IMG/VR virus record: IMGVR_UViG_3300020465_000119
Span: 1 to 20,442 of that record
DNA: 20,442 nt
Source: a virus
Direction: 5' to 3' (one strand)
Both the position numbers and the translations under genes were made by a program. Below, in pieces: positions 322 through 15,642 of the stretch. The notes below the pieces were generated by a model. That model was not told the origin of the DNA. It worked only from the letters and a program-made list of their open reading frames with translations, and ran no database searches. How positions within the stretch are numbered: the stretch's first letter is position 1; the number at the start of each line of letters is the position of its first letter.

Positions 322-1965
322 ATGGCAGACGATTCAAGAGGCTTTAGATTATTTGGATTCGAATTAAGAAGATCTCCTACCGAAGATCCAAATAAAAAAC
401 CATCAATAGTTCCAGCAAAGGACGATGATGGAGCAGGTTATGTTACTGCTTCAGGTTCACACTATGGACAATATATTAATTTAGATGGCGATGACTCTAA
501 AGATAATGCTCAATTAATTATGAAATATCGTGGAACAGCAATGCATCCAGAATGTGATGCTGCTATTGAAGATATTGTTAATGAAACTATTGTTTCTACA
601 TCTGAAGCCGGTGAACAATCGGTTGATATAGAATTAGAAAATCTTAAAGTTAGCGATGGAATTAAAAAACAAATAAAAGAAGAATTCGATAATATCATTT
701 CTATGTTAGATTTTAATGAATCTGGTCATGATATTTTTAAAAGATGGTATATTGATGGACGATTATATCATCATTTAGTAGTTAATGAATCCCAACTTAA
801 ATTGGGAATACAAGAAATACGTCCAATAGATTCATCAAAAATTAGAAAAGTAAAACAGGTTCAGAAGAAAAAAGATCCAGAGACTGGAGCTCAGCTTATT
901 GAAAAAGTTGATGAATACTACATTTATCAAGATAAACCTGGTGAAAGAACAGCCGGAGTTAAATTAAGTTTAGACTCTGTTAGTTATATAACATCTGGAA
1001 TATTAGATGAAACTCGAAAAAAAGTTTTAGGTTATTTACATAAAGCATTAAAGCCATTGAATCAGTTAAGAATGATGGAAGATTCATTGGTAATTTATCG
1101 TCTCGCACGTGCACCTGAGAGAAGAATATTTTATATAGACGTTGGTAACTTACCACGTGGTAAAGCTGAAGGATATATGAAAGATATTATGGCAAGATAT
1201 CGTAATAAGTTAGTTTACGATGCTAAGACCGGTGAAATTCGAGATGATAGAAAACATATGTCAATGCTCGAAGACTTTTGGCTTCCACGAAGAGAAGGAG
1301 GTCGAGGTACTGAAATTTCTACTCTTCCTGGTGGAGATAATTTAGGTCAAATAGATGATATAGTTTATTTTCAAAAGAAATTATACAAAGCTCTTAATGT
1401 TCCAATTAATCGATTAGAACAAGAAGCACAGTTCAGTCTTGGTAGATCTTCAGAAATAACTAGAGATGAACTTAAATTTCAGAAATTTGTAGCTAGATTA
1501 AGAACTAGATTCGGAAAATTTTTTACTGATCTATTAAAAACTCAGTTAATATTAAAAGGTATTATTACTGAAGATGATTGGCAAGATATGAAAAATGATA
1601 TTATAGTTGATTATTTAAAAGATAATCATTTTTCAGAATTAAAAGAATCAGAACTTTTAAGAGAAAGAGTCCAAACATTAGATCAAGTATCTCAATATGT
1701 TGGAACTTATTTTAGTCGTGACTGGGTAATGAAAAACGTATTACAGTTTAGCGATGAAGAAATTGAAAAAATGGCAGATGATGCTAAAGACGAATCTGAT
1801 CAAATGGGAGATCAAGAAGAAGAAATGCCACCTCAAAATGAAGAGGAAGTGCAGAAAGATTCTGACTTATCTATTGATGAAAATATTGTAAGGGAATTAG
1901 AAAGTGAAGTAAAACTAAAAGAATTAGAAGTTTTAGAAAACATCAATAACTCATTGAAAAAGTAG
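322..1965 (+). CDS. 20: Portal vertex protein gp20
   Basis: At 547 aa it is close to T4 gp20 (524 aa). Portal proteins form the dodecameric ring at one head vertex. The ring starts prohead assembly, is the channel through which the terminase packs DNA, and later joins the neck. Residues about 354-425 carry the best conserved stretch (ALNVPINRLEQEAQFSLGR, then SSEITRDELKFQKFVARLR and LKTQLILKGIITEDDW), recognisable as T4-type portal. The N-terminus has the usual mixed loop region. The last 70 residues are strongly acidic (EEEMPPQNEEEVQ). The ATG at 322 is preceded by AAGGAAAG at a normal distance. It stands after gp19 as in T4, but the genes downstream are a fibre cassette instead of the prohead core genes. 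Confidence 0.95.
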   Translation: MADDSRGFRLFGFELRRSPTEDPNKKPSIVPAKDDDGAGYVTASGSHYGQYINLDGDDSKDNAQLIMKYRGTAMHPECDAAIEDIVNETIVSTSEAGEQSVDIELENLKVSDGIKKQIKEEFDNIISMLDFNESGHDIFKRWYIDGRLYHHLVVNESQLKLGIQEIRPIDSSKIRKVKQVQKKKDPETGAQLIEKVDEYYIYQDKPGERTAGVKLSLDSVSYITSGILDETRKKVLGYLHKALKPLNQLRMMEDSLVIYRLARAPERRIFYIDVGNLPRGKAEGYMKDIMARYRNKLVYDAKTGEIRDDRKHMSMLEDFWLPRREGGRGTEISTLPGGDNLGQIDDIVYFQKKLYKALNVPINRLEQEAQFSLGRSSEITRDELKFQKFVARLRTRFGKFFTDLLKTQLILKGIITEDDWQDMKNDIIVDYLKDNHFSELKESELLRERVQTLDQVSQYVGTYFSRDWVMKNVLQFSDEEIEKMADDAKDESDQMGDQEEEMPPQNEEEVQKDSDLSIDENIVRELESEVKLKELEVLENINNSLKK

Positions 1966-1970
1966 TAATT

Positions 1971-3200
1971 ATGTCTAAGATTATTAATGAAGCTCTCATA
2001 GCATTACACATAAAAGAGCTAAAAGAAGAAATAGCTCGTCTCAAAAAATCTCAAGGAAAAGTTGGAGAAAAAGGTGACATCGGTGATCCGGGTCCTATTG
2101 GCTTACGCGGTCAAAAAGGTGAAAAGGGCGATAAGGGTATTAAAGGAGATATCGGTCCTCAAGGTCCTATTGGTGAAAGTATCACTGGATTACAAGGAGA
2201 TCCAGGAGAAAGAGGTCTAAGAGGTTATATTGGACCTATAGGCGAGACTGGTCCTCAAGGTGAACGTGGACCTGAAGGTGTTCAAGGTGAACAAGGAATT
2301 CCTGGATTTATTGGAGAACAAGGTCCAATTGGTCCGATAGGACCAGAAGGTCCAGAAGGACCTCAAGGTAAAAGGGGATTTATAGGTGAACAGGGACCTC
2401 AAGGAGAAAGAGGATTTCCTGGATTTGAGGGGCAACAAGGCGAGATTGGAGAACCAGGACCCGAAGGACGTCCAGGAGAAAGAGGCCCTAAAGGTGAACA
2501 AGGTGAAAGAGGTTTTACTGGACCTCAGGGGCCTGAAGGTAGATCATTAACAACAGAAGATGTTGAACCATTATTAGCAAATAAATTAAATTTATATCAA
2601 AAAAATTATGATAGATTTGTAAGTAATGTTAACAGATCGTTGTCATCACTTGGAGGTGGTGGTGAAACTAAACTTAAACGTTTAGATGATGTTGATGCAT
2701 CTGCTCTTGTTGATGGTAAAGTTTTAACGTATGACGCTACAACTGATAAATTTATTGGTGGTGTTGGAGGTGGCGGTGGCGATGGAACAATTGATTCAAG
2801 TTATCTTTCAAATCTTCAACAAAGTTTAGTTCCATTTGCTGATTCTGCTTATGATTTGGGTACTGCTGCTAAAAAATGGAAAGATTTATATCTAAGTGGA
2901 GAAACTATATATTTAGGTGGTTCAAAAATTCAACAAAAAGATAATAGATTATCAATACGTGGGCCAGATGGTGGCGAATTTAAAAATACTAATAATAATA
3001 CAACAACTATTCCAGGTACAACTAATACAGATTTAAGACTTACTCAAGGTGATTCTGATAATCGATTTAGAGAAGATGATAATACTAAAACTATGGGTAA
3101 TACAGACAGAGATGTATTTGGTTCAGATTTAAGAACTATATATGATAATATGGAACCACACGGAGTTTTCAAAAGTTTAGATCTTGGTGCGCTATCATAA
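1971..3200 (+). CDS. Collagen-like fibre protein
   Basis: This 409-aa protein begins with a short charged helix (residues about 1-28) that could be an oligomerisation segment. It is followed by Gly-X-Y triplets: 14 from G29 to G68, a four-residue break (ESIT), then 40 unbroken triplets from G73 to G190. Such tracts fold as collagen triple helices and are common in phage fibres. A GGGG-rich hinge (about residue 263) follows, then a tail-fibre-type segment around ADSAYDLGTAAKKWKDLYL, often seen in marine phage fibres. The C-terminal 70 residues are polar and rich in Asn, Thr and Asp. There is no clear Shine-Dalgarno; the ATG lies five bases after the gp20 stop, so translation is probably coupled to gp20. 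Its place in the virion is not shown by sequence. Confidence 0.85.
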   Translation: MSKIINEALIALHIKELKEEIARLKKSQGKVGEKGDIGDPGPIGLRGQKGEKGDKGIKGDIGPQGPIGESITGLQGDPGERGLRGYIGPIGETGPQGERGPEGVQGEQGIPGFIGEQGPIGPIGPEGPEGPQGKRGFIGEQGPQGERGFPGFEGQQGEIGEPGPEGRPGERGPKGEQGERGFTGPQGPEGRSLTTEDVEPLLANKLNLYQKNYDRFVSNVNRSLSSLGGGGETKLKRLDDVDASALVDGKVLTYDATTDKFIGGVGGGGGDGTIDSSYLSNLQQSLVPFADSAYDLGTAAKKWKDLYLSGETIYLGGSKIQQKDNRLSIRGPDGGEFKNTNNNTTTIPGTTNTDLRLTQGDSDNRFREDDNTKTMGNTDRDVFGSDLRTIYDNMEPHGVFKSLDLGALS

Positions 3201-3204
3201 CTTA

Positions 3205-3212
3205 TATAAATA
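3205..3212 (+). promoter_or_regulatory. T4-type late promoter for the fibre cassette
   Basis: An exact TATAAATA box lies in the 36-base gap before the 1023-aa fibre gene. T4-like phages use this single element, recognised by RNA polymerase with gp55. Start would be near 3218, leaving a short leader that holds the AAGGA ribosome site at 3226-3230. Confidence 0.8.
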
Positions 3213-3236
3213 GACTAAAGATATTAAGGATAAATT

Positions 3237-6200
3237 ATGCCGACAACACTACAGTTTAGAAGAGGTACTCAAGCTCAAAATAACTCTTTTACAGGAGCGG
3301 CAGGTGAAATAACTTTTGACGTAACTAATAAAACTCTTCGTGTGCACGATGGAGCTACTGCTGGTGGCCATAGATTAGGTACATTTGCTGAAGTAGTAAC
3401 TGCTCAAAATCAGGCTGCAGGATTAGATTCGGCTGCGGTTATTAAAATTTCTATTGATTCTGCTAGAACAGTTGGATTAATTGATTCTGCGTATATTAAT
3501 GCTAGAGCAGATGCTAATATAGATTCTGCTGCACTTATTGTTTTAGTTGAAAATGAATTAAAGCTTTTGGATTCAGATCGAGGTAATGCGTTAATTGATG
3601 CTAGAGTTAATGCTACATTTATTAATAATCTTACAATAGACGCTGATACTCTTGCTGGTCAAAACGGAGCTTATTATAGAGCGTATGGTAATTTAACTGG
3701 TAAACCTACTATTCCTTCTCTTGGAAATAGTTTTGTCGATTCAGCCGAGACAATTACTTTAGCAGATGCAAGAATTGCTGCAAATATTATTGATGAAGAT
3801 AATATGTCTTCTAATTCAGCTACACGAGCACCAAGTCAACAATCAGTAAAAGCTTATGTTGATACAGAAGTAAGTGGATTAGTTGCTTCTGCTCCAGGTG
3901 CATTAAATACATTGAACGAATTGGCGGCTGCTATAGGCGATGATGCCAATTTTAGTACAACTATTACAAATTCTATAGCCGCAAAATTAGATTCGGCTTT
4001 AACTACACAATTAATTGATAGTTCTTATGTTCAAGCAAGAACAACTGCTGGTACAGATTCGTCTGCTACTATTTCACTTATTAATAGTACAGTCAATGCA
4101 TTTAAAACTATTTCTGTGGCTGGTCAAGATAATGTTGTTGCAGATACGTCTAGCGATACATTAACATTTACAGCTGGTTCTAATATGACAATTACCACCA
4201 ATGCAGGTGGCGATGCAATTACATTTACCGCGGCAGGCGGTGGAGGTGGTGGTGACATTACGTCTGTTGTAGCAGGAAAAGGTATATTAGGAGGAGGAGC
4301 AAGCGCAGATGTTACCTTAAATCTAGATTCGGATAATATAAAAGCATTTACAGTACAACATTTGGGAACAGATTTTGTAGATTCAGCAGAAGCTAGAAAA
4401 CTTCTTTCTGGTGGTACAGGTATTACATATAATTCTAGTACTGGTGCAATTACGACTACCGACGCAGATATTGTTCATGATAATTTATCTGGATTCGTAG
4501 CTAACGAACATATTGATCATACTAGTGTTTCTATAACTGCAGGTAAAGGATTATCTGGAGGTGGAACAATAGCATCGACTAGAACTTTAAATGTTGATTC
4601 AGCAAATATTATATCTTTTACTGTACAACATTTAGGTACAGATTTTGTTGATTCTGGAGAAACTTTAAAATTAATTGGAGCTAATGCATTAGACTCAGCA
4701 AGAGCTTTAGTACAAATAAATTCTTTAAAACTTTTAGACTCTGCTCGTGGTTTACTTGTACCTGAAACTGAATTTAGTGTAACAACAGCAAGTGGTAGTG
4801 TTTATAAATTTACAGGAGATGGTTTCCCATCTCAATCAGGAAATAATCCAACTCTTTATTTTACTCGTGGTAAGAGATATGTAATTCATAATTCTTCTTA
4901 TGGTTCTCATCCGCTATATATTAAAACAACTCCAGGTACCGGAACAGGAAATCAACAATCATCTGGTACTGCGGGACAAGGTAGTGTTAAAGTAACGTTT
5001 GATGTTCCAATGGATGCACCAAAATTATTGTATTATCAATGTTCTGCTCACGCAGCAATGCATGGAACTATAGTTATATTAAGTGAAGCTTCTGCAGTCG
5101 ACTCTGCTCAAGTTTCAGGAATAATCGATTCTGATTACGTAAATATTAGATCATTAAAAGGTCTTTCAGTTAGTACAGCTTCTGCTTCAGGTGGCGGTAC
5201 TTTAGCTTATAATAATGTTACCGGTGTATTTACTTTCGCCCCTTCAACAAACTCTGGTGGTGGCGGAGGATTAGATTCTGCTTTAACTACTCAACTTATC
5301 GATAGTTCTTATGTTCAAGCAAGATCCAGCGGTGGCAGTTCATTAACGGTACAAAACGAAGGATCATCATTATCAACTGCGGCAACAACACTTAACTTTG
5401 TTGGTGCAGGTGTTTCAGCATCTGGATCAGGAGCTACTAAAACAATTACTGTTGAGTCTGAAGTATCACCGGGACCTTCATTATCGAATTATGAATATTT
5501 TGCCACAAATGGTCAGACAATATTTTCTGGTAATGACGTTGATGGATCTAGTTTATCTTTTGCTACAGATACTATACTGGTTCATCATAATGGTATTTTA
5601 TTGAAGAAAACTAATGACTATATTGAATCTGCTGGTAATAATAGAATAACACTAACATCTGCTGCAGATTCAGATGATATTCTTACAGTATCAGTTTTTG
5701 GTACTCCGGGTAATGCCGGAATAACCTCGTTTAAATATGAAGCCGATTCTGCACAAACAGCTTTTGGTGGTACAGATTTAGGTGGTGCTACACTTGGATA
5801 TACAGTTGGAAAAGTTCAGGTACATTTAAATGGTATATTATTAACAGATAGTGATGACTATACTGCTTCTAATGGTACACAAGTTGTTTTAACTTCTGGT
5901 GCTGATAGCGCTGATATAATTAGTATTTCAGCTTTTTCTGGTAGAGGAATAGATTCAGCTACAACTATTGCTTTAATTGATAGTTCTTATGTTCAAGCAA
6001 GAGTTTCTGGCGGTACTGACTGGCAAGCTGTTAAAACTACGGATTATACGGCAGTTGCTGGACAAGGTGTATTTGTTAATAGTACAGCAGGAACTAAGAC
6101 AGTAACATTACCGGCCAATCCTACATTAGGAGATCAAGTTAGAATTGTAGATGCTTATGGCACATCTGCTACAAATAATATAACTATTGCACGAAATAGT

Positions 6201-6308
6201 AAGAAAATAATGGGAGCAGATTCTAATTTAGTATTATATGTTAATAGAGCTGCAGTTGGTTTAGTATTTGTTAATGATGCTCAAGGTTGGGTACAAATAG
6301 AAAAATAA
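3237..6308 (+). CDS. Large DSA-repeat tail fibre with embedded cupredoxin-like domain
   Basis: This is a 1023-aa structural protein. The N-terminal 50 residues (FRRGTQAQN, then AGEITFDVTNKTLRVHDG) match the attachment domain found at the start of many phage fibres and the major tropism determinant. The body is built from short units with DSA or DSS: LIDSSYVQAR occurs three times and FTVQHLGTDFVDS twice. Residues about 513-615 look like a cupredoxin, with a His after a turn (H558) and C602-x2-H605-x2-M608 near the end. Two 75-residue repeats (about 749-825 and 835-905, each with HxNGILL and DDY) follow, and then a C-terminal beta domain ending in VFVNDAQGWVQIEK. Own late promoter at 3205; ribosome site AAGGA. 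Probably a host-contact fibre, but its position in the particle cannot be read from sequence. Confidence 0.8.
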   Translation: MPTTLQFRRGTQAQNNSFTGAAGEITFDVTNKTLRVHDGATAGGHRLGTFAEVVTAQNQAAGLDSAAVIKISIDSARTVGLIDSAYINARADANIDSAALIVLVENELKLLDSDRGNALIDARVNATFINNLTIDADTLAGQNGAYYRAYGNLTGKPTIPSLGNSFVDSAETITLADARIAANIIDEDNMSSNSATRAPSQQSVKAYVDTEVSGLVASAPGALNTLNELAAAIGDDANFSTTITNSIAAKLDSALTTQLIDSSYVQARTTAGTDSSATISLINSTVNAFKTISVAGQDNVVADTSSDTLTFTAGSNMTITTNAGGDAITFTAAGGGGGGDITSVVAGKGILGGGASADVTLNLDSDNIKAFTVQHLGTDFVDSAEARKLLSGGTGITYNSSTGAITTTDADIVHDNLSGFVANEHIDHTSVSITAGKGLSGGGTIASTRTLNVDSANIISFTVQHLGTDFVDSGETLKLIGANALDSARALVQINSLKLLDSARGLLVPETEFSVTTASGSVYKFTGDGFPSQSGNNPTLYFTRGKRYVIHNSSYGSHPLYIKTTPGTGTGNQQSSGTAGQGSVKVTFDVPMDAPKLLYYQCSAHAAMHGTIVILSEASAVDSAQVSGIIDSDYVNIRSLKGLSVSTASASGGGTLAYNNVTGVFTFAPSTNSGGGGGLDSALTTQLIDSSYVQARSSGGSSLTVQNEGSSLSTAATTLNFVGAGVSASGSGATKTITVESEVSPGPSLSNYEYFATNGQTIFSGNDVDGSSLSFATDTILVHHNGILLKKTNDYIESAGNNRITLTSAADSDDILTVSVFGTPGNAGITSFKYEADSAQTAFGGTDLGGATLGYTVGKVQVHLNGILLTDSDDYTASNGTQVVLTSGADSADIISISAFSGRGIDSATTIALIDSSYVQARVSGGTDWQAVKTTDYTAVAGQGVFVNSTAGTKTVTLPANPTLGDQVRIVDAYGTSATNNITIARNSKKIMGADSNLVLYVNRAAVGLVFVNDAQGWVQIEK
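4017..6002 (+). repeat. 24-base direct repeat, three copies inside the fibre gene
   Basis: The same 24 bases, beginning GATAGTTCTTATG and ending CAAGCAAGA, occur at 4017-4040, 5301-5324 and 5979-6002. All are in frame and encode DSSYVQAR. Identity at the DNA level, including third positions, suggests recent duplication or gene conversion, and the copies could recombine to lengthen or shorten the fibre. Confidence 0.8.
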
Positions 6309-6574
6309 TGGTTGAAAGTTTAAATAGAAAAATAGCTAGAAGAGGTGGTAGAGCTGCTAGGGATAATACTATAAAATTAAACGGAGATTTAGCAATTCAG
6401 TTTGTTACTCATTATTCAAGTATTAATAGTTTACCTAGTAGTGCAAGTGAAGGAGATTTAGCATATGTTTCGGCCGCAAATCATCCTAAAGTACTTTATA
6501 TATACATAAATCATGACGGAGATCCGTATACAGCCAGCGGTTGGTATAGTCTTAAAATAGGAGAGGCAGCATAA
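6308..6574 (+). CDS. Small fibre-domain protein (88 aa)
   Basis: The ATG at 6308 overlaps the stop of the fibre gene (TAATG), which favours coupled translation. An upstream TTG at 6287 in the same frame would add seven residues but has no clear ribosome site. After a basic start (NRKIARRGGRAARDN) the protein aligns by eye with residues 10-75 of the following 1107-aa protein: both have N-T/I-I-x-L-x-G, an x-SLP segment, then G-D/S-LAY/F, LYIY/H and a GW near the end. It therefore looks like a stand-alone copy of the N-terminal domain of the next gene, perhaps an adaptor or a short attachment subunit. The exact role is unknown. Confidence 0.6.
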   Translation: MVESLNRKIARRGGRAARDNTIKLNGDLAIQFVTHYSSINSLPSSASEGDLAYVSAANHPKVLYIYINHDGDPYTASGWYSLKIGEAA

Positions 6575-9500
6575 TGCCTATGACAAGAGCAAGAGATTTA
6601 GCAAGTAGTTTAGGACAAGCTGTTTCTAAAAATAATATCACTTTAAGTGGTGGACTTTCAGTTAGTGGTCTTACTACATATACTAATAAAGCCAGTTTAC
6701 CTGGTAGTTATGATTCTGATAATGCTGGTAGTTTAGCTTTTACTACAGATTCTGATAGACTTTATATTCATACTGGTACAGGTTGGCATAATGTTGCTAT
6801 TATTAATACAACTCCACTTTGGGTTACTCAACCGGCTGGATCATATACATTAGCTACTGACGCGACCGGTCATCCTCAACCTAATACTGGAACGGCCACT
6901 GAAATTATTGTAAGAGCCCGTGATTCAGAAGGCGCGGCAATAACTTGGTCTGCTACAGCAGATTCTGCATTTGGTACTATAGCTCGTATTACTCAAGACT
7001 CGGCTGGTACTAATGTTAATAAATTTATTATAGAACCCCATTCACAAGATTCAGTAAGTGCTGGTAATACTTCAGGTACTGTTACATTCAAAGCATCTGA
7101 TGGAGTTAATATATTATCTCAAGTATCAACATTCACGCTAGAATTTTACACAACTATTCCAGATTCAGAAGGTACTAATCTGATCACTAAAATGATAGGT
7201 AATAATGGTGTTAATACTGTATTTGATGATGGATCCTCTGGCAATCATACTGTAACAGTAAATGGAGATACTCAGCAAGGTTCATTTTCACCATATGCTT
7301 CTAGCGGTTATAGTTATTGGTTCGAACAAGCTAATCATGGCCATTTAGAATATGCTGATTCTGCAGATTGGGATTTATCTGATTCTGCAGATTGGACAAT
7401 AGAATTTTGGGTTAATCCTGAACTGCTTACTAACTACGCTACGATTATAACTCAGGTAAATGCTTTTGCTATTGAATTATATGATAAGAGTATTAGTGGA
7501 TGGTTCTCAGATAATGGTAGTGGAAATTGGGGTATATTAAATCAAGAACGACTTGGTCCTAAGTTAAATATAGGCGAATGGACACATTTTGCGATTGTTT
7601 ATGATGCATCAGCCGATACAATAAAATCATATCAAAATGGTAGTTTATATGGAACTTTTACTAGTAAAACAGGTTTTACTGGCAATAGTAATGTGCTGAA
7701 AATTGGTCAATATGATGGCCACCCATGGTATGGTGGTATATGTGATTTACGTTTAGTAAAAGGTAAAGCGGTTTATACTGGTAATTTTACTCCGCCCAGC
7801 GGTAAACTTACTACTACTGGTGGTGAATATCATTCTACTACAAATGTTGTAAATCCAACTAGTTCAGAAACAAAACTTTTAACGTGTCAACAACCTTTTA
7901 TTATAATAGGAAAAGATGTTACTGGAAATCACACACATACAGTATCTACTAATCAAGTTAGAGTATTACCTATATCTCCATACATGCTTCCGGATGCATA
8001 CAGTAAGACGGCGAATGGAGGTTCAGTTTATTTAGATGGAACAGGTGATCACCTTGCATCACCTGCTCATGCTGATTTTAATCCAGGTACCGGTGCTTAT
8101 ACGGTAGAAGGTTGGTTTTGGTTTAGTGCTGATACTGCTGCTAATAGTGGTTTATTTTGTTCACATTCTGGAGGAGGTTATGGTTTTGGTATGTGGACAA
8201 CTGGTTCTATATTATATATTGAAGAAAGACAAAATAGTTATGGATCTCAGATGAGACAAACATATACTTGGCCAAGCAATATGTGGAAAGAATCATGGCA
8301 CCACGTCGCTATGGGTAGAGACAGCACTTCTGGAACAATGAAAGCATTTATTAACGGTATACAAGTTGCTAGCGCAAGTTCAGATTTGAGGGATTTGACC
8401 GATGACGGGCCTCTTCATGTAGGAACTAGTAATGCTGGAGTAAGCCCAATGACAGGATTTCTAAGTGATTTTAGATATATCAAAGGTACACAAGTTTATA
8501 CATCTGCCTTCACACCTCCAACAGCACCATTGACAGCGATTAGTAATACTAAATTTTTGCTCAGTATGGCTGATGCGAATGTAATTGATAACGGCGGCAG
8601 AGGTGTTTTTAGACTTAAAGGAACTGCTAAAAGTTCTACTGGTGTTCAAAAAAATTCAATACCATCTTTATACTTAGATGGAAATAGCGATTATATTGAA
8701 AAAGGTATGACTAGAGGATTAGCAATACAGCATAGTTTTACTACTACAAATTTTACCATAGAAGGGTGGATATATCGATCAGCTGTAGGAGCTGAGCACT
8801 ATATAATAGATAATCGAAATGGGAATAACTATAATTGGGCAGTATCTGTAAATTCAAGTAATCTAATAGTATGGAATCCTAGGAATGGTTCAAGTGATAA
8901 TGCCATGACCTCAGACTCAACAGCAATGAGTAGTGTTAATACATGGTATCATTTTGCTATTGTTAGACATTATAGTAAAAAATCAAGCGCGGTAAATGAA
9001 TACATTTATATAAATGGTGTACAAGCTAATAGTAGAGCAAATGTTAATGCGATTAAAGTAGATAATTCTAGTGCACCAAAATATTATATTGGAGCAAAAA
9101 ATGATGCCAGTACTTTCTTTAATGGTTATATAAGCGATCTTAGAGTTAAAAAGGGACTAGCCGAGTATCCATTTCGACCGTTAAAGGAAACTTTAACATC
9201 CACAACATCTTTTCAGAAAGGGAGAACGGTAGGAGGTTCAGGTGGGCATACAAAAATAATTTGTTGTCATAGTTCTACTCTTACAGCAGACGGATCAGCA
9301 GCAGGAAGAACATTAGTAGCTACTAATGCTACAGCTTCAACTAATTCGCCACACGGAGGTATGAAATCCGTGTATTTTGATAGTACTAGCTCTGCCTCGC
9401 ATATAAGTGCTAATACATCAACTTCTCAATTTGCTTTAGGTACTGGGGATTATACATTTGAAACCTGGGTTAATTTCCATTCTTTCCCACAAACAATAAA

Positions 9501-9897
9501 TACTATAGCCGGTACTACTATAAGCGCTGGTAGTACTGTTTTATATTGGCATGCTAAATCTGATAGATTATCTATTGGAACCCAGGACGCATGGATTAGA
9601 GATAATGCTAATATTACTTGGGAGACAGGGAAATGGTATCATGTAGCTGTATGTAGAATTTCAGCTACTACAACAATTTTTGTAGATGGTCATGTAATTG
9701 ATTCTTTTGGCAGTGATACTACTAGTTATACTGCCGATGGTTTTAGAGTAGGTGGTAATAATTCAGGTGGTAACCCGTTGAAAGGATGGTTATCTAATAC
9801 GAGATTAATAGTTGGTACAGGAATATATCAAAAAGATTTTGTACCGTCAACAACAGCATTAGATTCAGAAGTTGGACCAGCAATTGGTAGCGGTTAA
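6574..9897 (+). CDS. Large structural protein with four LamG/concanavalin-like domains
   Basis: This 1107-aa protein starts MPMTRARDLAS and has, in order, a small N-terminal domain (residues 10-75), a cadherin- or Ig-like domain (about 90-205), then four repeats of the LamG/concanavalin-like jelly roll (about 247-413, 482-653, 696-869 and 930-1096). Each repeat shows the family signs: an F/YLDG-like strand, an aromatic-rich strand (TIEFWVN, TVEGWFWF, TIEGWIYR, TFETWVN), W-x-HFA/HVA before the central strand, an F/I-x-NG turn, and a final G-x-LSDxR strand followed by FTPP or a similar turn. Such domains bind glycans or mediate protein contacts. The ATG overlaps the previous stop (TAATG), with GGAG just before. 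Most likely a receptor-binding or decoration protein of the virion; no signal peptide or membrane segment is seen. Confidence 0.8.
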   Translation: MPMTRARDLASSLGQAVSKNNITLSGGLSVSGLTTYTNKASLPGSYDSDNAGSLAFTTDSDRLYIHTGTGWHNVAIINTTPLWVTQPAGSYTLATDATGHPQPNTGTATEIIVRARDSEGAAITWSATADSAFGTIARITQDSAGTNVNKFIIEPHSQDSVSAGNTSGTVTFKASDGVNILSQVSTFTLEFYTTIPDSEGTNLITKMIGNNGVNTVFDDGSSGNHTVTVNGDTQQGSFSPYASSGYSYWFEQANHGHLEYADSADWDLSDSADWTIEFWVNPELLTNYATIITQVNAFAIELYDKSISGWFSDNGSGNWGILNQERLGPKLNIGEWTHFAIVYDASADTIKSYQNGSLYGTFTSKTGFTGNSNVLKIGQYDGHPWYGGICDLRLVKGKAVYTGNFTPPSGKLTTTGGEYHSTTNVVNPTSSETKLLTCQQPFIIIGKDVTGNHTHTVSTNQVRVLPISPYMLPDAYSKTANGGSVYLDGTGDHLASPAHADFNPGTGAYTVEGWFWFSADTAANSGLFCSHSGGGYGFGMWTTGSILYIEERQNSYGSQMRQTYTWPSNMWKESWHHVAMGRDSTSGTMKAFINGIQVASASSDLRDLTDDGPLHVGTSNAGVSPMTGFLSDFRYIKGTQVYTSAFTPPTAPLTAISNTKFLLSMADANVIDNGGRGVFRLKGTAKSSTGVQKNSIPSLYLDGNSDYIEKGMTRGLAIQHSFTTTNFTIEGWIYRSAVGAEHYIIDNRNGNNYNWAVSVNSSNLIVWNPRNGSSDNAMTSDSTAMSSVNTWYHFAIVRHYSKKSSAVNEYIYINGVQANSRANVNAIKVDNSSAPKYYIGAKNDASTFFNGYISDLRVKKGLAEYPFRPLKETLTSTTSFQKGRTVGGSGGHTKIICCHSSTLTADGSAAGRTLVATNATASTNSPHGGMKSVYFDSTSSASHISANTSTSQFALGTGDYTFETWVNFHSFPQTINTIAGTTISAGSTVLYWHAKSDRLSIGTQDAWIRDNANITWETGKWYHVAVCRISATTTIFVDGHVIDSFGSDTTSYTADGFRVGGNNSGGNPLKGWLSNTRLIVGTGIYQKDFVPSTTALDSEVGPAIGSG
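7356..7395 (+). repeat. 16-base direct repeat encoding DSADW
   Basis: TGATTCTGCAGATTGG is present at 7356-7371 and again at 7380-7395. It encodes a duplicated DSADW motif at the start of the first LamG-like domain. It looks like a small in-frame duplication. Confidence 0.7.
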
Positions 9898-9925
9898 TAA
9901 CAGATTAATAAATTAGGAGTAAATT

Positions 9926-11011
9926 ATGGCCATAACTAGAGCAAGAAGGAAATCTGCATTCGGCAATGATGCCGATCCTAATATAATTTTAGAACCTTCA
10001 AATATAGCAATAGGTCCAGTAGCTGGTTCTACTGATTCAGCAAATACTATTATGTTAGCAAAAGATCCAGAGGGTTTTCCAATTACTTATGACGTTAATT
10101 ATTTTGATTCATCTACTACAACATTTTATAAAAATGATTCATCTAATTTACCTCCTCATTTATTACATCCTGCTCAAATAACTGATAGTGCTGGTACTGG
10201 TAAATTTAGATTTCTTACAAGATCTGCTGATTCTGATGGATCTGGTAATTCTACTAAAAATCAACTTAAATTAAGATATACTGCTTCAGACGGTATTCGA
10301 ACAAGTACAAGTATAAAAACTTTTAAACTGGATTTTGGTGCAGCATTATGGAGAATATTTGTTCAAAGCGGTTCTGCTTGGGGTAGTACTTATTGGGATC
10401 ATGAAAATGAAGATGATGGTGAAATGGGTTGGATTACAGATAGTACCACAGCAAATAATAATAATAAAAATATAATAGCTGGTACCGTTTCAGGATATGG
10501 AACGGAATTAGGTTTACTAGCTGACGATGCTAGTTCTGCTGCTAGTAAATACGGTTTTTGGAGAGGTGACGATGATTTCTTTTCTGGAACAAAACATACC
10601 TTTACAAATGAAGATGTTACTAAAGATTGGTTTAAATCAGCAGGTACGAGTAATGCAAGACAATACGTTAGGGCAGCGACCGCGGGCGCTACGGATGCTG
10701 ATAAATTAACCGGAGGAAGAGATTACATATTCTTTTGGTTTAGTGAAGCTCTTAGTGATGCTAAAATAGCTGGTACTTATTTGAGATTTGATACATTTCA
10801 AAATGGACGTCCAGATAGAAGACCTAGTGGAACTGTGTTATTCCAATATTACAGTGGAACTCTTGGCAGTAATTATAGTGCTTCTAATTGGGTAACATGG
10901 TGTAGTTTAGATATGGATTACGGTAATAATGGCGGCAGCGGCGGAAATTATTCGAGATATTATTTTGGGCCTTTAGTTAAAGGTGCAACACTTACCGCTA
11001 CACATTTTTAA
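9926..11011 (+). CDS. Structural protein sharing the Ig-like domain of the LamG protein
   Basis: This 361-aa protein starts MAITRARRKS, close to the MPMTRARDLA start of the preceding gene. Residues about 25-135 repeat the pattern of that protein's Ig- or cadherin-like domain: A-x-D-x-E-G-x-x-ITW/Y, ITxDSAGT, and a YTASDG/FKASDG strand followed by SxxxTFxLxF. The C-terminal 220 residues are different, rich in Trp, Tyr, Gly and Asp and ending in a beta-type segment (YYFGPLVKGATLTATHF). I do not recognise that part. AGGAGT stands six bases before the ATG. It closes the fibre cassette, and may be a second tip bound to the same attachment site as the LamG protein; this is inference from the shared N-terminal part. 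Confidence 0.65.
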   Translation: MAITRARRKSAFGNDADPNIILEPSNIAIGPVAGSTDSANTIMLAKDPEGFPITYDVNYFDSSTTTFYKNDSSNLPPHLLHPAQITDSAGTGKFRFLTRSADSDGSGNSTKNQLKLRYTASDGIRTSTSIKTFKLDFGAALWRIFVQSGSAWGSTYWDHENEDDGEMGWITDSTTANNNNKNIIAGTVSGYGTELGLLADDASSAASKYGFWRGDDDFFSGTKHTFTNEDVTKDWFKSAGTSNARQYVRAATAGATDADKLTGGRDYIFFWFSEALSDAKIAGTYLRFDTFQNGRPDRRPSGTVLFQYYSGTLGSNYSASNWVTWCSLDMDYGNNGGSGGNYSRYYFGPLVKGATLTATHF

Positions 11012-11033: not shown

Positions 11034-11369
11034 ATGGCTGAAGAAGCACAAGAAGTTGAACAAAACCCATTACACGATTTGGTGCAACACGCATTAGATC
11101 AAGATTATAATAAAGCGAATAGAGTGTTTGGTGACTTAATGGGAGTCAAAATGCAAGATGCTTTAGATCAAGAGCAAATAAAAATTGCTGATAAACTTTA
11201 TAACGGAGTTGATGATGAAGTTGAAGCCGAGGCTGAAGCCGAAATTGAAGCTGAAGCTGAAGTAGAAACTGATGAAGATCAAGGAGAATTAGATTTAGAA
11301 GATGATGAGTCTGAAGAAATTGAACAAGATGAAGAAGAATTACTTGATGATGAAGAAAACATAGAGTGA
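11034..11369 (+). CDS. 67: Acidic prohead core protein, gp67-like
   Basis: This is 111 aa: a helical N-terminal half, then a C-terminal half made almost only of Glu, Asp and Ala (EAEAEAEIEAEAEVE, later DEEELLDDEENIE). T4 gp67 (80 aa) has the same plan, and the N-terminal parts align by eye: LVQHALDQDYNKANRVFGDLM here against LIEAIKSNDLVAARKLFAEAM in T4, then EQIKIADKLYNG against EKIALARNFLIEG. In T4 gp67 is an internal core protein needed for correct prohead shape and is degraded by gp21. Here it is two small genes upstream of gp21. AAGGAGT lies before the ATG. The repeated GAAGCT/GAAGCC codons (about 11219-11265) could slip. Function is by homology and position. Confidence 0.75.
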   Translation: MAEEAQEVEQNPLHDLVQHALDQDYNKANRVFGDLMGVKMQDALDQEQIKIADKLYNGVDDEVEAEAEAEIEAEAEVETDEDQGELDLEDDESEEIEQDEEELLDDEENIE

Positions 11370-11399: not shown

Positions 11400-11407
11400 T
11401 ATAAATA
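11400..11407 (+). promoter_or_regulatory. T4-type late promoter for the head operon
   Basis: An exact TATAAATA box lies in the 55-base gap before the 67-aa gene. Start would be near 11413, so the leader is about 12 bases and would begin with the ribosome site AAAGGG (11413-11418). It can feed the 67-aa gene, the 82-aa gene, gp21, gp22 and gp23, as no terminator is seen before 15094. Confidence 0.8.
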
Positions 11408-11424
11408 TATACAAAGGGTATTAA

Positions 11425-11628
11425 ATGAAAACTTTTTTAGAAATTAGAGAAGCTAAAAATAAACCTGTAGTTTCTAAGAAGATCGGAAAAATTAAAATGT
11501 CCGTCATGAAAGAACCGAAAGGTTTTACTGTATATGTCGATGGCGATAAAATAGACACATATAAAAGTCAGAGAGAAGCTGAAAAAGCTGGAACAACTTT
11601 TATAAAACAATATAGAGGAATGAGATAA
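11425..11628 (+). CDS. Small basic head protein with capsid-targeting-like N-terminus
   Basis: The 67-aa protein starts MKTFLEIREAKNK. T4 internal protein III starts MKTYQEFIAEA, the capsid-targeting sequence that brings proteins into the prohead core and is removed by gp21 after I-A-E. Here residues 7-9 read I-R-E, fitting the protease rule (L/I)-x-E, so cleavage after E9 is predicted. The rest is Lys-rich (about 13 Lys and 5 Arg) with a short beta region (KGFTVYVDGDKIDTY), compatible with DNA contact inside the head. It sits just upstream of gp21, where T4 has gene 68, so it is either a gp68-like core protein or an internal protein packed with the DNA. The targeting match is visible; packaging is inference. 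Confidence 0.65.
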   Translation: MKTFLEIREAKNKPVVSKKIGKIKMSVMKEPKGFTVYVDGDKIDTYKSQREAEKAGTTFIKQYRGMR

Positions 11629-11877
11629 ATGGAAATAACACCTTTAGCTGCAAAAGTAAATAATTTAAATGGTTCCGGTAATGCTACAACCGTAGGTTCA
11701 GCTAGTATACTCTATATAATGGGTACCGCAGCAGATACAGTTACTAATAAAACTACTGGAGGTTCTTTTCAAATAGCACCTAATCAACCAATAGTAATGC
11801 ATAAAGCAAGATTAGATGAAGTTTTTAGTGGTGCTACTACAACGCATTTTACTAAAATAGAATTTCCTAGAGGATAG
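11629..11877 (+). CDS. Small hypothetical protein, probably beta-rich
   Basis: This 82-aa protein begins directly after the stop of the previous gene (TAA then ATG), with GAGGAA upstream, and ends four bases before gp21. It is rich in Thr, Ala and Gly, with alternating hydrophobic residues (GSASILYIMG, GGSFQIAPNQPIVMHK, HFTKIEFP) that suggest a small beta sandwich. No signal peptide, membrane segment or Cys is present. I do not recognise the family. Position in the head operon suggests a small head or decoration protein, but nothing in the sequence resembles T4 Soc or gp68 closely. Confidence 0.65.
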   Translation: MEITPLAAKVNNLNGSGNATTVGSASILYIMGTAADTVTNKTTGGSFQIAPNQPIVMHKARLDEVFSGATTTHFTKIEFPRG

Positions 11878-11881
11878 CGCA

Positions 11882-12538
11882 ATGAAACTTATATCAGAAT
11901 TTCATGATCAAAATCTTCAGATGCTAATTACTGAAGGGAAAAACGGTAAAAAGAAATATCATATAGAAGGTGTATTTGCGCAAGCAGAAAGTAAAAATAG
12001 AAATGGACGTATTTATCCTATGGGCGTTATGGAAGGCGCTGTTGGTAAATACTCTGAAAATCAAGTTTCTAAAGGTCGTGCCGTCGGTGAATTGAATCAC
12101 CCAGAAGGGCCGACTATAAATTTAGATAAGGTTTCACATAAGATCGATGAACTCAAATTTGAGGGAAATGATGTTATGGGAAGAGCCACAGTATTGGACA
12201 CTCCGATGGGTAATATAGTCGAAGGACTGCTCGAAGGTGGCGTTCAACTGGGCGTTTCGACTCGTGGTATGGGGAGTTTGGAGAGACGTAATGGCGCAAT
12301 GGTTGTCAAAGACGACTTTATTCTTAACGCGATAGACATCGTGCAAGATCCATCAGCACCTAGTGCTTTTGTTAATGGGATAATGGAAGGTGTAGAGTGG
12401 ATTTGGAATAACGGCATTATTGAACAAAGAGCTATTGAAAAAATGGAGACTGAAATAAAACGGGCTCCGCGGGCAGATCTCTATGAGACACAAGTTCGTG
12501 AGTTTAAAAATTTCCTCTCGTTACTAAAATCAAAATAA
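11882..12538 (+). CDS. 21: Prohead core protein protease gp21
   Basis: At 218 aa it matches T4 gp21 (212 aa). This serine protease sits in the prohead core and, when assembly is complete, cuts scaffold, core proteins and the capsid precursor at (L/I)-x-E sites. Conserved blocks are visible: YHIEGVFAQAESKNRNGRIYP (residues 26-46, T4 has LYIEGIFMQAEVVNRNKRLYP), GELNHP with the catalytic His73, GVSTRGMGS with the nucleophile Ser126, and DIVQDPSAP at 152-160, where Asp152 aligns with a conserved Asp of T4. All key residues are present. It is followed after 14 bases by the scaffold gene gp22, as in T4. Substrates in this window are probably gp22, gp23, the gp67-like protein and the 67-aa protein. 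Confidence 0.95.
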   Translation: MKLISEFHDQNLQMLITEGKNGKKKYHIEGVFAQAESKNRNGRIYPMGVMEGAVGKYSENQVSKGRAVGELNHPEGPTINLDKVSHKIDELKFEGNDVMGRATVLDTPMGNIVEGLLEGGVQLGVSTRGMGSLERRNGAMVVKDDFILNAIDIVQDPSAPSAFVNGIMEGVEWIWNNGIIEQRAIEKMETEIKRAPRADLYETQVREFKNFLSLLKSK

Positions 12539-12552
12539 AGGGAGTCAATTAA

Positions 12553-13680
12553 ATGACTGATGAAAATCAATTGGAAGAAGGTGAACTCCACGAAAATGAC
12601 GACGTGGAAGAAGCTCATGATCCCAAAAACGCTCCTGCTCAAGAAGTAGCTGCTGCCGATAAAGCAGAAGATGCTGCTCCGAAAGCTAAGAAGCGAAAGG
12701 GTGATAAGTCTGGCAAAGATCCAATGCAAAAAGTCGCTGCTCCTGCAGGTCAAGACTCAAAAGTCGATGACAAAGGTGCTATGCCTTTTAAAGAAGGATA
12801 TAAAACCAAAGCAGGAATGATTAATGCTGCATACCAGAAAATGAATGGTATGAAAAAGGAAGAACTTGCTGTTCTTATGTCTAAAATAATGCAAGAAAGT
12901 TCAACTGAAGACGGAGAGGTAGTCGTTGAAAATCAAGTTGATGATATAGATTATCAAACTGATTGGAATGACGATCTTAACGCTTTAGTAAATTCTGAAG
13001 CTACTCTTTCTGAAGAGTTCAAATCTAAAGCTGAAACTATTTTTAATATGGCTATTAAGAATAAGTTATCAGAAGAAGTTGATCGCTTAGAAGAGAAGTA
13101 TAACGAAGAACTCACTGCTGAAATAGAGGAAACTAAAACAGGACTCGTAGATAAGGTTGATTCATACCTTAACTATGTTGTTGAAAACTGGATGGAAGAA
13201 AATAAACTTGCTGTCCAATCTGGCCTCAGAACAGAGATCGCCGAAAAATTTATGAATAATCTTAAAGATCTATTCACTGAATCATACATCGACGTACCTG
13301 AGTCTAAAGTCGACCTAGTTGACGACTTAGCTGCAGAAGTTGAAGAGTTGGAAACATCTCTAAATGACCAAACAGCTAAATCCATCGCAATGCAAGAGGA
13401 ACTCGAAGGTTATAAAAGAGACTCGATTATTAGAGAAGCTTCTAGAGACCTAGCAGAAACTCAAATTGAAAAGCTGAAATCTTTAACAGAAAAAACCGAT
13501 TTTGAAGATGAGGAATCATTTACTAAAAAGGTTGCTACTGTTAAGGAATCATATTTTAATAAAAAGGCTACACCAACATCAACTTTGACAGAAGAAACAG
13601 ATGAAGATACTAATGAAGTAGAAGCTTCTGGCTCTATGTCACAGTATGTTAATGCCTTAAAAACCCAAATCAAAACTTAA
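12553..13680 (+). CDS. 22: Prohead scaffold protein gp22
   Basis: This 375-aa protein lies between protease and capsid genes, the place of T4 gene 22 (269 aa). It is very rich in Glu, Lys, Asp and Ala and is predicted to be mostly helical. Long heptad-like stretches (about residues 150-205 and 255-315) suggest coiled coils. The first 85 residues are charged and low in complexity and hold L-x-E sites such as LEE (6-8) and LHE (12-14), possible gp21 cuts. In T4 gp22 forms the bulk of the assembly core and is degraded to peptides before DNA packaging. GGGAG stands before the ATG. The call rests on composition and gene order more than on motif identity. Confidence 0.88.
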   Translation: MTDENQLEEGELHENDDVEEAHDPKNAPAQEVAAADKAEDAAPKAKKRKGDKSGKDPMQKVAAPAGQDSKVDDKGAMPFKEGYKTKAGMINAAYQKMNGMKKEELAVLMSKIMQESSTEDGEVVVENQVDDIDYQTDWNDDLNALVNSEATLSEEFKSKAETIFNMAIKNKLSEEVDRLEEKYNEELTAEIEETKTGLVDKVDSYLNYVVENWMEENKLAVQSGLRTEIAEKFMNNLKDLFTESYIDVPESKVDLVDDLAAEVEELETSLNDQTAKSIAMQEELEGYKRDSIIREASRDLAETQIEKLKSLTEKTDFEDEESFTKKVATVKESYFNKKATPTSTLTEETDEDTNEVEASGSMSQYVNALKTQIKT

Positions 13681-13690
13681 AGGGAGTCCA

Positions 13691-13710
13691 AAGAGATGCA
13701 AAGAGATGCA
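13691..13710 (+). repeat. Tandem 10-base repeat at the gp23 start
   Basis: AAGAGATGCA occurs twice in a row, each copy containing an ATG (13696 and 13706). Only the first ATG is in the gp23 frame. It has GGGAG nine to ten bases upstream, so the second is out of frame and probably silent. Confidence 0.75.
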
Positions 13711-15072
13711 ATATCTTACGATAAGTTGGTCGAAAAATGGGCCCCAGTTCTTAATGAAGAATCTGCGGGTACTATAAGCGATCATCACAAGAAAGCAGTT
13801 ACAGCTGCTGTTCTTGAAAACCAAGAAATCGCTCTTCGTGAAGAGGGCATGCTTCAAGAAAATTCTAACCTTGGAGTAACTGCTGCCAATCACGGTACTA
13901 CAGGCGCAAACTGGAATCCAGTTTTAATTGCTCTTGTAAGACGAGCTATGCCAAACTTAATGGCTTACGACGTATGTGGCGTTCAGCCGATGACAGGACC
14001 AACAGGTCTTATCTTCGCAATGAAAGCTAGATACAACACATCAACAGGTGGTGCTGCTGCAGGCGCTACTCAAGCTGCTAACACCGAAGCGTTGTTTAAC
14101 GAAGCACTAGTTAATTATTCTGGTGACTCAACAACAACAGGACTTGGAGATAAAGGTTCTTCAGGTTTGTTCGGCGTATCTGATACTAACTCTGACTCGT
14201 CAATTGACGACTCTGGTGCTTCTTATGTACCTGAAATTGGTGATGCTTTAACAACAAACGAAGCTGAAAATCTAGGCATATCAGGTGGACAAGCATTTGC
14301 AGAGATGGGATTTACCATTGAGAAAGCTACAGTGACTGCAAAGTCAAGAGCACTCAAAGCTGAATACACTCTAGAACTTGCTCAAGACTTGAAAGCTATT
14401 CATGGTCTAGATGCTGAAACTGAATTGGCAAACATTTTGTCAACAGAAATTTTGGCAGAAATTAACCGTGAAGTTATCAGAACTGTTAACCAGCAAGCTA
14501 AAATCGGTTGTCTTCAGTCTAACATGAATACAAAAGGTCTTTTCTCATTAACTAATGACGCTGATGGTCGTTGGTCAGTAGAGAAATTCAAAGGTCTTAT
14601 TGTTCAGCTTGAAAGAGAAGCCAACGTAATCGCAAAAGAAACCAGACGTGGTAAGGGTAACTTTATGATCTGTTCATCAGACGTTGCCTCAATTCTATCT
14701 GCTTCTGGAATGTTGGATTACGCTCCATCAATGAATACTTCATTAAACGTTGATGATACTGGTAATACATTTGCTGGTACTATTAACGGTAGAATGAGAG
14801 TATACATCGATCCATATGCGTCAGCAGACTATGTTAACGTTGGATATAAGGGTACAAATCCTTACGATGCTGGACTTTTCTATTGCCCATACGTACCTCT
14901 AACTATGGTACGAGCAGTTGGCGAGAATACATTCCAACCAAAAATCGGCTTTAAGACTCGATATGGTATGGTCTCTAATCCTTTTGTTGGATCTTCTCCA
15001 TCAGACGGACTTGCTACTGCAAGAACTAACCAGTACTACAGAATTTTCAGAGTGGATCATATCCTCACATAA
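13696..15072 (+). CDS. 23: Major capsid protein gp23
   Basis: This 458-aa protein is the hexamer-forming shell subunit; T4 gp23 has 521 aa and marine T4-like versions are shorter, as here. Typical blocks include ANWNPVLIALVRRAMPNL (about 71-88), QPMTGPTGLIFAMKARY (about 97-113), the region around TAKSRALKAEYTLELAQDLK, and the C-terminal NPYDAGLFYCPYVPL. The N-terminal propeptide carries L53-Q54-E55, a gp21 site at the position expected for maturation (T4 cuts after residue 65). Codon use contains more AAC, GAC, TTC and ATC than the fibre genes, as expected for the most abundant virion protein. A strong terminator follows. There is no separate gp24-type vertex protein in the window. Confidence 0.97.
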   Translation: MQRDAISYDKLVEKWAPVLNEESAGTISDHHKKAVTAAVLENQEIALREEGMLQENSNLGVTAANHGTTGANWNPVLIALVRRAMPNLMAYDVCGVQPMTGPTGLIFAMKARYNTSTGGAAAGATQAANTEALFNEALVNYSGDSTTTGLGDKGSSGLFGVSDTNSDSSIDDSGASYVPEIGDALTTNEAENLGISGGQAFAEMGFTIEKATVTAKSRALKAEYTLELAQDLKAIHGLDAETELANILSTEILAEINREVIRTVNQQAKIGCLQSNMNTKGLFSLTNDADGRWSVEKFKGLIVQLEREANVIAKETRRGKGNFMICSSDVASILSASGMLDYAPSMNTSLNVDDTGNTFAGTINGRMRVYIDPYASADYVNVGYKGTNPYDAGLFYCPYVPLTMVRAVGENTFQPKIGFKTRYGMVSNPFVGSSPSDGLATARTNQYYRIFRVDHILT

Positions 15073-15122: not shown

Positions 15123-15130
15123 TATAAATA
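15123..15130 (+). promoter_or_regulatory. T4-type late promoter for the gp3-like gene
   Basis: An exact TATAAATA lies one base after the T-run of the gp23 terminator. With the usual late-promoter spacing, transcription would start at about 15136, which is the A of the ATG of the next gene. The mRNA may thus lack a leader. Confidence 0.82.
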
Positions 15131-15135
15131 GTACT

Positions 15136-15642
15136 ATGGCAAGCTTAACAACAAATCTAAATTACTTACAACCTACTTCGTATAAAATCACTATTGACCG
15201 TGAGAATTATCCGAACCTAGAATACTTTGCTCAGACTATAACACATCCTGGAGTTATAACTCAACAAGTAGAAATGCCTTTTAGACAAGTTGCTGGAGTT
15301 CCATTAACTGGATCTTCTTTAACGTATAACGAATTATCAGCAACAATAATACTTGATGAGAATATGTCATCATATACCGAAATGCACGATTGGATAAGAA
15401 GAAACGTAGAAAATTCAGATGTGCCTGCTTTAAGTAGAGATTACAAAAAACAAAAACCTCCAACTTATTCAGACATTACAATATCAATATTGTCAAGTCA
15501 TAATAATAAAACAAAACAAATAGTATATAGAGATTGTGTACCAACTTCATTAGGTGATATTACCTTTGAATCAACTGCAACTGGTACAGAATTTGTAACT
15601 TATGCTGTTTCATTTAGATTTATGTACTTTGATATCGTATGA
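15136..15642 (+). CDS. 3: Tail tube terminator, gp3-like (tail-tube fold)
   Basis: This 168-aa protein has the tail-tube-type beta fold pattern: YKITIDRENYPNLEYFAQ, then HPGV, then a loop, then a strand-helix block (ATIILDENMSSYTEMHDWI) and a final strand ending FRFMYFDIV. As I remember T4 gp3, it has the same order (VRFLVDEDLKSWLNMYEWM and PYKYFQV), and gp3 commonly follows gp23 in marine T4-like phages. gp3 caps the tail tube as a hexamer and stabilises the sheath end. A gp19 paralogue or a baseplate tube initiator (gp48/54 type) is the main alternative. No ribosome site is visible before the ATG, which lies right at the predicted transcription start. The 3' end overlaps the next gene by ATGA. 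Confidence 0.65.
   Translation: MASLTTNLNYLQPTSYKITIDRENYPNLEYFAQTITHPGVITQQVEMPFRQVAGVPLTGSSLTYNELSATIILDENMSSYTEMHDWIRRNVENSDVPALSRDYKKQKPPTYSDITISILSSHNNKTKQIVYRDCVPTSLGDITFESTATGTEFVTYAVSFRFMYFDIV

What the first reader, a model, noticed from the sequence alone, without database searches (positions are those of the whole stretch)
11425..11628. Capsid-targeting N-terminus on a 67-aa basic protein: candidate internal (injected) protein
MKTFLEIREA resembles the T4 capsid-targeting sequence MKTYQEFIAEA of internal protein III, and I7-R8-E9 fits the gp21 cleavage rule. The mature part would be Lys-rich and about 58 aa. T4 internal proteins enter the host with the DNA and can block host defences, so this may be a packaged effector in a marine phage, with its own late promoter.
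Basis: partly seen in the sequence, partly recalled or inferred. Interest (0 to 1): 0.72.

Follow-up and report, generated by a model that had tools for sequence, protein, structure and literature searches.

The report
Likely packaged basic head protein
A small, positively charged protein made next to the head-building protease of a marine T4-like phage probably carries a removable address tag that loads it into the forming head; it belongs to a widespread, unnamed family in ocean phages, but nothing shows that it is a weapon injected against host defences.

Summary
The 67-aa basic ORF with N-terminus MKTFLEIRE|A is real, conserved and under purifying selection. It belongs to an unnamed family (107 unique sequences collected, no PHROG, Pfam or PDB match) in marine T4-like phages. 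Nearly every member whose contig extends far enough lies just upstream of the prohead protease gene gp21, usually after an acidic gp67-like gene. That is the slot T4 uses for gp68, but the protein is not a gp68 homologue. Among 51 representatives the N-terminus is strongly conserved: F4 about 49, R8 about 49, [ILMV]7 50, E9 41. The gp21 rule [IL]-x-E holds at position 9 in about 80%. It resembles T2 internal-protein targeting sequences (MKTFKEFINE|A). The rest forms a confident basic b4-alpha domain (pLDDT 88, pI 9.2-10.1), and a TATAAATA late promoter is conserved upstream. The capsid-targeting reading therefore gains support. 'Injected anti-defence effector' does not: the gene sits in the head operon, evolves conservatively and has no counter-defence relative. 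It is dispensable, being absent from 22 of 75 closely related gp21 loci. Best reading: a T4-IP-like, gp68-slot core/internal head protein. Virion location and cleavage are untested.

The parts
11425..11628 (+). 67-aa basic protein X (the finding), including stop codon
   Evidence: ORF; family of 107 unique relatives; dN/dS about 0.17
11425..11451 (+). codons 1-9, MKTFLEIRE: candidate capsid-targeting helix / propeptide, predicted gp21 cut after E9
   Evidence: F4, R8, [ILMV]7 near-invariant, E9 41/51; helix 4-11 at low confidence
11452..11625 (+). codons 10-67, mature basic b4-alpha domain
   Evidence: AlphaFold2 pLDDT 87.7, pTM 0.69; pI 10.05
11400..11407 (+). TATAAATA, T4-type late promoter element
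   Evidence: conserved in 64/73 and 43/49 relatives
11034..11369 (+). acidic gp67-like prohead-core protein, 111 aa, net -39
   Evidence: aligns with T2 gp67, 31% to the window protein; C48C1 homologue in the same place; acidic gene (net <= -10) upstream in 63/76 family loci
11629..11877 (+). 82-aa gene inserted between X and gp21 in some relatives
   Evidence: present in 41 of 132 gp21-tree rows with many changes; 27 short downstream ORFs counted
11882..12538 (+). gp21 prohead protease
   Evidence: Pfam PF03420 4e-37, phrog_207 2.7e-75
12553..13680 (+). gp22 scaffold
   Evidence: Pfam PF25623 1.6e-66, phrog_237
13696..15072 (+). gp23 major capsid protein; propeptide boundary LQE|N aligned to T2 LTE|A
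   Evidence: Pfam PF07068 9.4e-144; alignment
322..1965 (+). gp20 portal
   Evidence: Pfam PF07230 1.1e-175

Best explanation
X is a small basic internal-head (prohead-core) protein. Its N-terminal helix M-K-T-F-x-x-[IL]-R-E docks it onto the gp22/gp67-like scaffold core (inferred from the T4 capsid-targeting sequence). When gp21 is activated it cuts after E9 in most members (inferred from the [IL]-x-E rule, which this lineage's own gp23 and gp21 obey). The propeptide leaves and the basic b4-alpha domain (predicted) stays among the DNA, helping to neutralise or organise it, and probably leaves with the DNA at infection (inferred by analogy). It fills the genomic slot, and probably part of the role, of T4 gp68, but is unrelated to gp68 in sequence. 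It is a dispensable helper, not an essential one.
For: Nearly every family member with room downstream is directly upstream of gp21, or separated from it only by the 82-aa gene; an acidic gene is upstream in 63/76, and the order 20-67-X-21-22-23 matches T2's 20-67-68-21-22-23. The conserved N-terminal motif resembles T2 internal proteins ip7 MKTFKEFINE|A and ip4 MKTYQEFITE|A; residues 4, 7, 8 and 10 carry targeting and processing in IPIII (PMC9026906). The gp21 rule holds in this lineage: the gp23 propeptide boundary is [LIM]-x-E aligned with T2's LTE|A, and a gp21 N-terminal [ILV]-x-E is conserved. Mature pI is 9.2-10.1 in the 32 representatives tested. The folded domain starts just after the cut site. 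Late promoter conserved. Purifying selection, dN/dS 0.17. Other phages place different basic proteins in the same slot (DLP_6 MKTWNQFKSQLPIHE|A; HTVC008M and Melnitz).
Against: About 20% of representatives lack E9 (mostly K instead), nearly all without another early [IL]-x-E. P1' in X is often L or K, not seen at P1' in the gp23 boundaries inspected. R8 is near-invariant though the rule does not need it, so the segment may be conserved for another reason. X is absent in 22/75 loci with closely related gp21, so it is not an obligatory core part. No virion data.
Confidence: 0.6

Rival explanations
1. X is a transient core (scaffold) component, a functional replacement of gp68: it helps to build or size the core, then is degraded or expelled, and is never injected.
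For: Same operon slot as gp68 and beside an acidic gp67-like gene; gp67 and gp68 are cut into fragments and mostly leave the head (PMC9026906 and PMC5694885).
Against: The body is a compact domain; not homologous to gp68 (hhalign probability 0.4%); missing from many close relatives, whereas mutations in gp67/gp68 in T4 change head shape (PMC2984593).
Confidence: 0.2
2. X is a packaged effector that is injected and blocks a host defence, as T4 IPI* does.
For: CTS-like N-terminus, basic small body, patchy presence across close relatives, similar overall layout to T-even internal proteins.
Against: Fixed position in the head operon, purifying selection at only 1.6 times the gp21 rate, one conserved domain across the family, no match in Pfam or PHROGs, and no PDB fold match at E<0.001. 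T-even internal proteins are a highly diverse set sharing only the CTS (PMC3012670).
Confidence: 0.12
3. X is not a virion protein: it is a small regulator or assembly partner of gp21/gp22 whose N-terminal helix is a binding motif and not a cleaved propeptide.
For: Immediate neighbour of gp21; R8 more conserved than E9; a fifth of members cannot be cut at residue 9 by the known rule.
Against: Conserved own late promoter implies substantial expression; strong basicity is typical of internal proteins; absent in 22/75 close gp21 loci, awkward for an essential gp21 partner.
Confidence: 0.08

Closest known systems
T4/T2 internal proteins with capsid-targeting sequence (IPI, IPII, IPIII; T2 ip4, ip5, ip7)
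   Same: Short N-terminus M-K-T-[FY]-x-E/Q-hydrophobic..E, then a small basic body; gp21-type cut site; late gene
   Different: One residue shorter before the cut; R8 near-invariant; conserved single family fixed beside gp21 instead of diverse genes elsewhere; packaging and cleavage not shown
T4 gp68 prohead core protein
   Same: Same slot (after gp67, before gp21), small, basic, next to a strongly acidic partner
   Different: No sequence relation (hhalign probability 0.4%); half the length; b4-alpha domain instead of a Lys/Arg-rich tail; absent from many close relatives
HTVC008M and Melnitz 82-aa basic slot protein
   Same: Same slot, small, basic, in marine Kyanoviridae phages
   Different: Different family, related to each other (39%) but without X's MKTF..[IL]RE motif; relation to X not formally tested
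DUF2188-like small b-sheet plus helix domains
   Same: Weak sequence hint (one family member, E 0.15); layout resemblance recalled from memory
   Different: Below any accepted threshold; no shared function known

Membership tests
T4 internal proteins (CTS class) | N-terminal ~10-residue targeting sequence with hydrophobic residues at the key positions | tested here: met
   MKTFxx[IL]RE conserved in 51 representatives, compared with T2 IPs; similarity only, with a one-residue gap
T4 internal proteins (CTS class) | gp21 cleavage motif L/I-X-E ending the propeptide | tested here: inconclusive
   [IL]-x-E at 9 in 40/51, met in the window; absent in about a fifth; P1' often L/K
T4 internal proteins (CTS class) | Basic mature body | tested here: met
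   pI 9.2-10.1 for all 32 representatives tested
T4 internal proteins (CTS class) | Present in virions and ejected with DNA | not testable with these tools
   needs virion proteomics
T4 internal proteins (CTS class) | Anti-restriction or other host-directed activity (IPI*) | not testable with these tools
   no Pfam or PHROG family matched; the activity itself needs an experiment
T4 gp68 | Sequence homology to gp68 | tested here: not met
   hhalign probability 0.4%, E 0.16
T4 gp68 | Gene position between gp67 and gp21 | tested here: met
T4 gp68 | Required for normal head shape | not testable with these tools
   X absent in 22/75 close loci argues against strict need

The most novel reading that the evidence does not exclude
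Marine T4-like phages use a one-residue-shorter capsid-targeting code, F-x-x-[IL]-R-E, distinct from the T4 code, to load interchangeable basic proteins into the gp68 slot; X is the most common cargo there and, once injected, acts on host DNA or host defence.
Probability: 0.1. Interest if true: 0.75.

Novelty: new member of a known kind. Interest (0 to 1): 0.45.

Why it matters
It gives a testable role to a very common but unannotated gene of ocean T4-like phages (more than 400 relatives confirmed in one capped IMG/VR scan). It extends the capsid-targeting idea, worked out in T4, to marine lineages, where a 2010 review held that gp67 and gp68 are missing from cyanophages (PMC2984593). If the tag works it offers a second, compact address label for loading proteins into phage heads. 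It also suggests that an acidic-plus-basic pair in the prohead core is a recurring design, met by unrelated basic proteins.

Tried and rejected
Homology to T4/KVP40/Ackermannvirus gp68: rejected. PHROGs, Pfam and PDB by sequence: nothing above threshold; the cef (phrog_1354, E 0.089) and galectin hints are noise. Foldseek, PDB and viral: no match at E<0.001; the best viral matches are unnamed small phage proteins, and MmoD 6d7k_H (TM 0.73, E 0.67) is a fold resemblance only. Whole-genome enrichment of MKTF-type starts in C48C1 and a 131-kb relative: not significant (P about 0.2), so the motif alone is no proof. Window-wide TATAAATA count: no more than expected. Strict conservation of E9: looked near-universal in 32 representatives (28/32) but fell to 41/51 when loci recruited through gp21 were added. 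X elsewhere in records lacking it upstream of gp21: none in 11 records, but these are fragments and the run had no positive control. Cellular genomes: one match, in a 142-kb contig of a Sphingobacteriales MAG with the same portal-67-X-21-22 order, so probably a phage contig. Literature on phage C48C1: none held.

Full report
WHAT IS THERE. The window is a fragment of a marine T4-like phage: portal gp20 (322-1965), then about 9 kb of adhesin-like genes, then an acidic gp67-like gene (11034-11369), the 67-aa protein X (11425-11628), an 82-aa gene, prohead protease gp21 (11882-12538), scaffold gp22, major capsid gp23, UvsY and further T4-type genes. The record held is the 20442-base window itself.

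THE FAMILY. One isolate genome, phage C48C1 (Kyanoviridae), has a relative at 44% identity. Its annotated start (14491) is too late; the conserved frame begins at GTG 14434, and the gene ends directly before gp21. Scans of IMG/VR found 13, then 413 confirmed (80 kept), 22 and, using only the body of the protein, 498 confirmed (80 kept) relatives. After adding loci recruited through gp21, 107 unique sequences gave 51 representatives below 80% identity. No PHROG, Pfam or PDB family matches.

POSITION. Of 76 unique members, 73 have gp21 downstream; the other three lie at or near contig ends, and one of these has the 82-aa gene next. The gap is -4 to 8 nt, or 246-279 nt where the 82-aa gene intervenes. 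An acidic ORF (net -10 or lower) is found upstream in 63 of 76 by a simple search. T2 and KVP40 have 20-67-68-21-22-23. Several cyanophages have only the acidic gene. HTVC008M and Melnitz have a different basic 82-aa protein in the slot, and Stenotrophomonas phage DLP_6 has a 261-aa basic protein starting MKTWNQFKSQLPIHE|A. So the slot recurrently holds a basic protein next to an acidic one, though the proteins appear unrelated. X is not a gp68 homologue.

THE N-TERMINUS. In 51 representatives F4 is present in about 49, R8 in about 49, a hydrophobic residue at 7 in 50 and E9 in 41 (a few rows are off register). Positions 5, 6 and 10 vary freely; in the 32-representative alignment mean entropy is 1.0 bit for positions 2-9 against 1.4 for the rest. 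T2 internal proteins found by the same kind of search begin MKTFKEFINEAAAP (ip7), MKTYQEFITEAAIN (ip4) and MKTFKEFATK (ip5). In IPIII, residues 4 and 7 matter for targeting, and 8 and 10 for processing (PMC9026906). The gp21 rule L/I-X-E (same source) holds in this lineage: the gp23 propeptide boundary is [LIM]-x-E aligned to T2's LTE|A, LQE|N in the window, and gp21 carries a conserved N-terminal [ILV]-x-E. Caveats: about a fifth of members lack E9, P1' in X is often L or K (not seen in the gp23 boundaries inspected), and R8 is conserved without the rule needing it. Chance rates: [IL]-x-E with E at 9 in 3% of C48C1 gene starts, at 8-12 in 11%.

THE BODY. Residues 10-67 are predicted with good confidence (pLDDT 87.7, pTM 0.69) as four strands and a C-terminal helix. 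In the full-length model residues 4-11 form a less certain helix (block pLDDT 61). The folded part begins a few residues after the predicted cut, so cleavage would release an intact domain (inference). Mature pI is 9.2-10.1 in the 32 representatives tested, net +9 in the window. Fold searches give no match at E<0.001.

EXPRESSION AND SELECTION. TATAAATA occurs within 45 nt upstream in 64 of 73 members, and in 43 of 49 in the gp21-recruited set, against 3 of 139 C48C1 genes. Median dN/dS is 0.17 for X and 0.13 for gp21 over 221 usable pairs; X accumulates amino-acid changes about 1.6 times as fast. That is the pattern of a conserved structural gene, not of the highly diverse T-even internal proteins (PMC3012670).

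DISPENSABILITY. Among 80 loci recruited only by gp21 (75-84% identity to the window's), 53 have X, 5 are too short to tell and 22 lack it. A FastTree gp21 tree needs at least five changes of state, with weak branch support. X was not found elsewhere in 11 records lacking it, all fragments and without a positive control. X is therefore common but not obligatory.

MECHANISM. Shown: position, conservation, motif, promoter element, basicity, selection. Predicted: fold. Inferred: docking to the core through the N-terminal helix, gp21 cleavage after E9, retention with DNA, ejection. I put 0.6 on an internal head protein, 0.2 on a transient gp68-like core part, 0.12 on an anti-host effector and 0.08 on a non-virion gp21 partner.

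NOVELTY. A new protein family that works, by sequence, like a known kind (CTS-bearing internal/core proteins). Membership is not proven, because presence in virions is untested.

Noticed in passing
window 1971-11011: About 9 kb of adhesin-like genes (collagen repeats, Mtd_N domain, four laminin-G-like domains) sits between portal gp20 and the gp67-like gene; laminin-G-like genes also precede the gp67-like gene in L002 and L028, while L029, L030, L235 and L238 have the portal directly before it.
   Followed up: partly
window 11629-11877: 82-aa gene between X and gp21: present in 41 of 132 gp21-tree rows with at least 15 changes on the tree, so frequent gain or loss; similar-sized genes occur in Melnitz and HTVC008M. 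Possibly a decoration protein (guess).
   Followed up: partly
L017 3667-4017, L018 3814-4026, L019 3518-3745, L024 3658-3981, L026 3685-4017: Cyanophages carry an acidic gene in the gp67 position, annotated hypothetical, which looks like a gp67 analogue although a 2010 review says gp67 is missing from all cyanophages.
   Followed up: partly
L015 6001-6198 (C48C1 record 14434-14631): Annotated start of the C48C1 X homologue (14491) is too late; the conserved frame starts at GTG 14434, so the targeting motif is lost in the public annotation.
   Followed up: yes
L227 4284-4733 (Salmonella phage ISTP3 142183-142632): A CTS-like N-terminus MKTFLEFYRES on an ADP-ribosyltransferase domain (Pfam ART-PolyVal 2e-10): candidate packaged ADP-ribosyltransferase, recalling T4 Alt.
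   Followed up: partly
L211 11659-11832; L218 11105-11266 and 11266-11616 (minus strand): Unrelated small proteins starting MKTFQEF, MKTFKQM and MKTFDQL in C48C1 and a 131-kb relative; possible further head-targeted cargo, but such starts are not significantly enriched.
   Followed up: partly
L020 2896-3681: Stenotrophomonas phage DLP_6 has a 261-aa basic protein starting MKTWNQFKSQLPIHE|A between gp20 and gp21, another candidate head-targeted protein.
   Followed up: no
window 15123-15138: TATAAATA lies only 5 nt before the ATG of the tail-tube-like gene at 15136, so the true start or promoter there is unclear.
   Followed up: no
L314 2472-3800: A 142-kb contig assigned to a Sphingobacteriales MAG carries portal, gp67-like, X (GTG start), gp21 and gp22: probably a misbinned T4-like phage contig.
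   Followed up: partly
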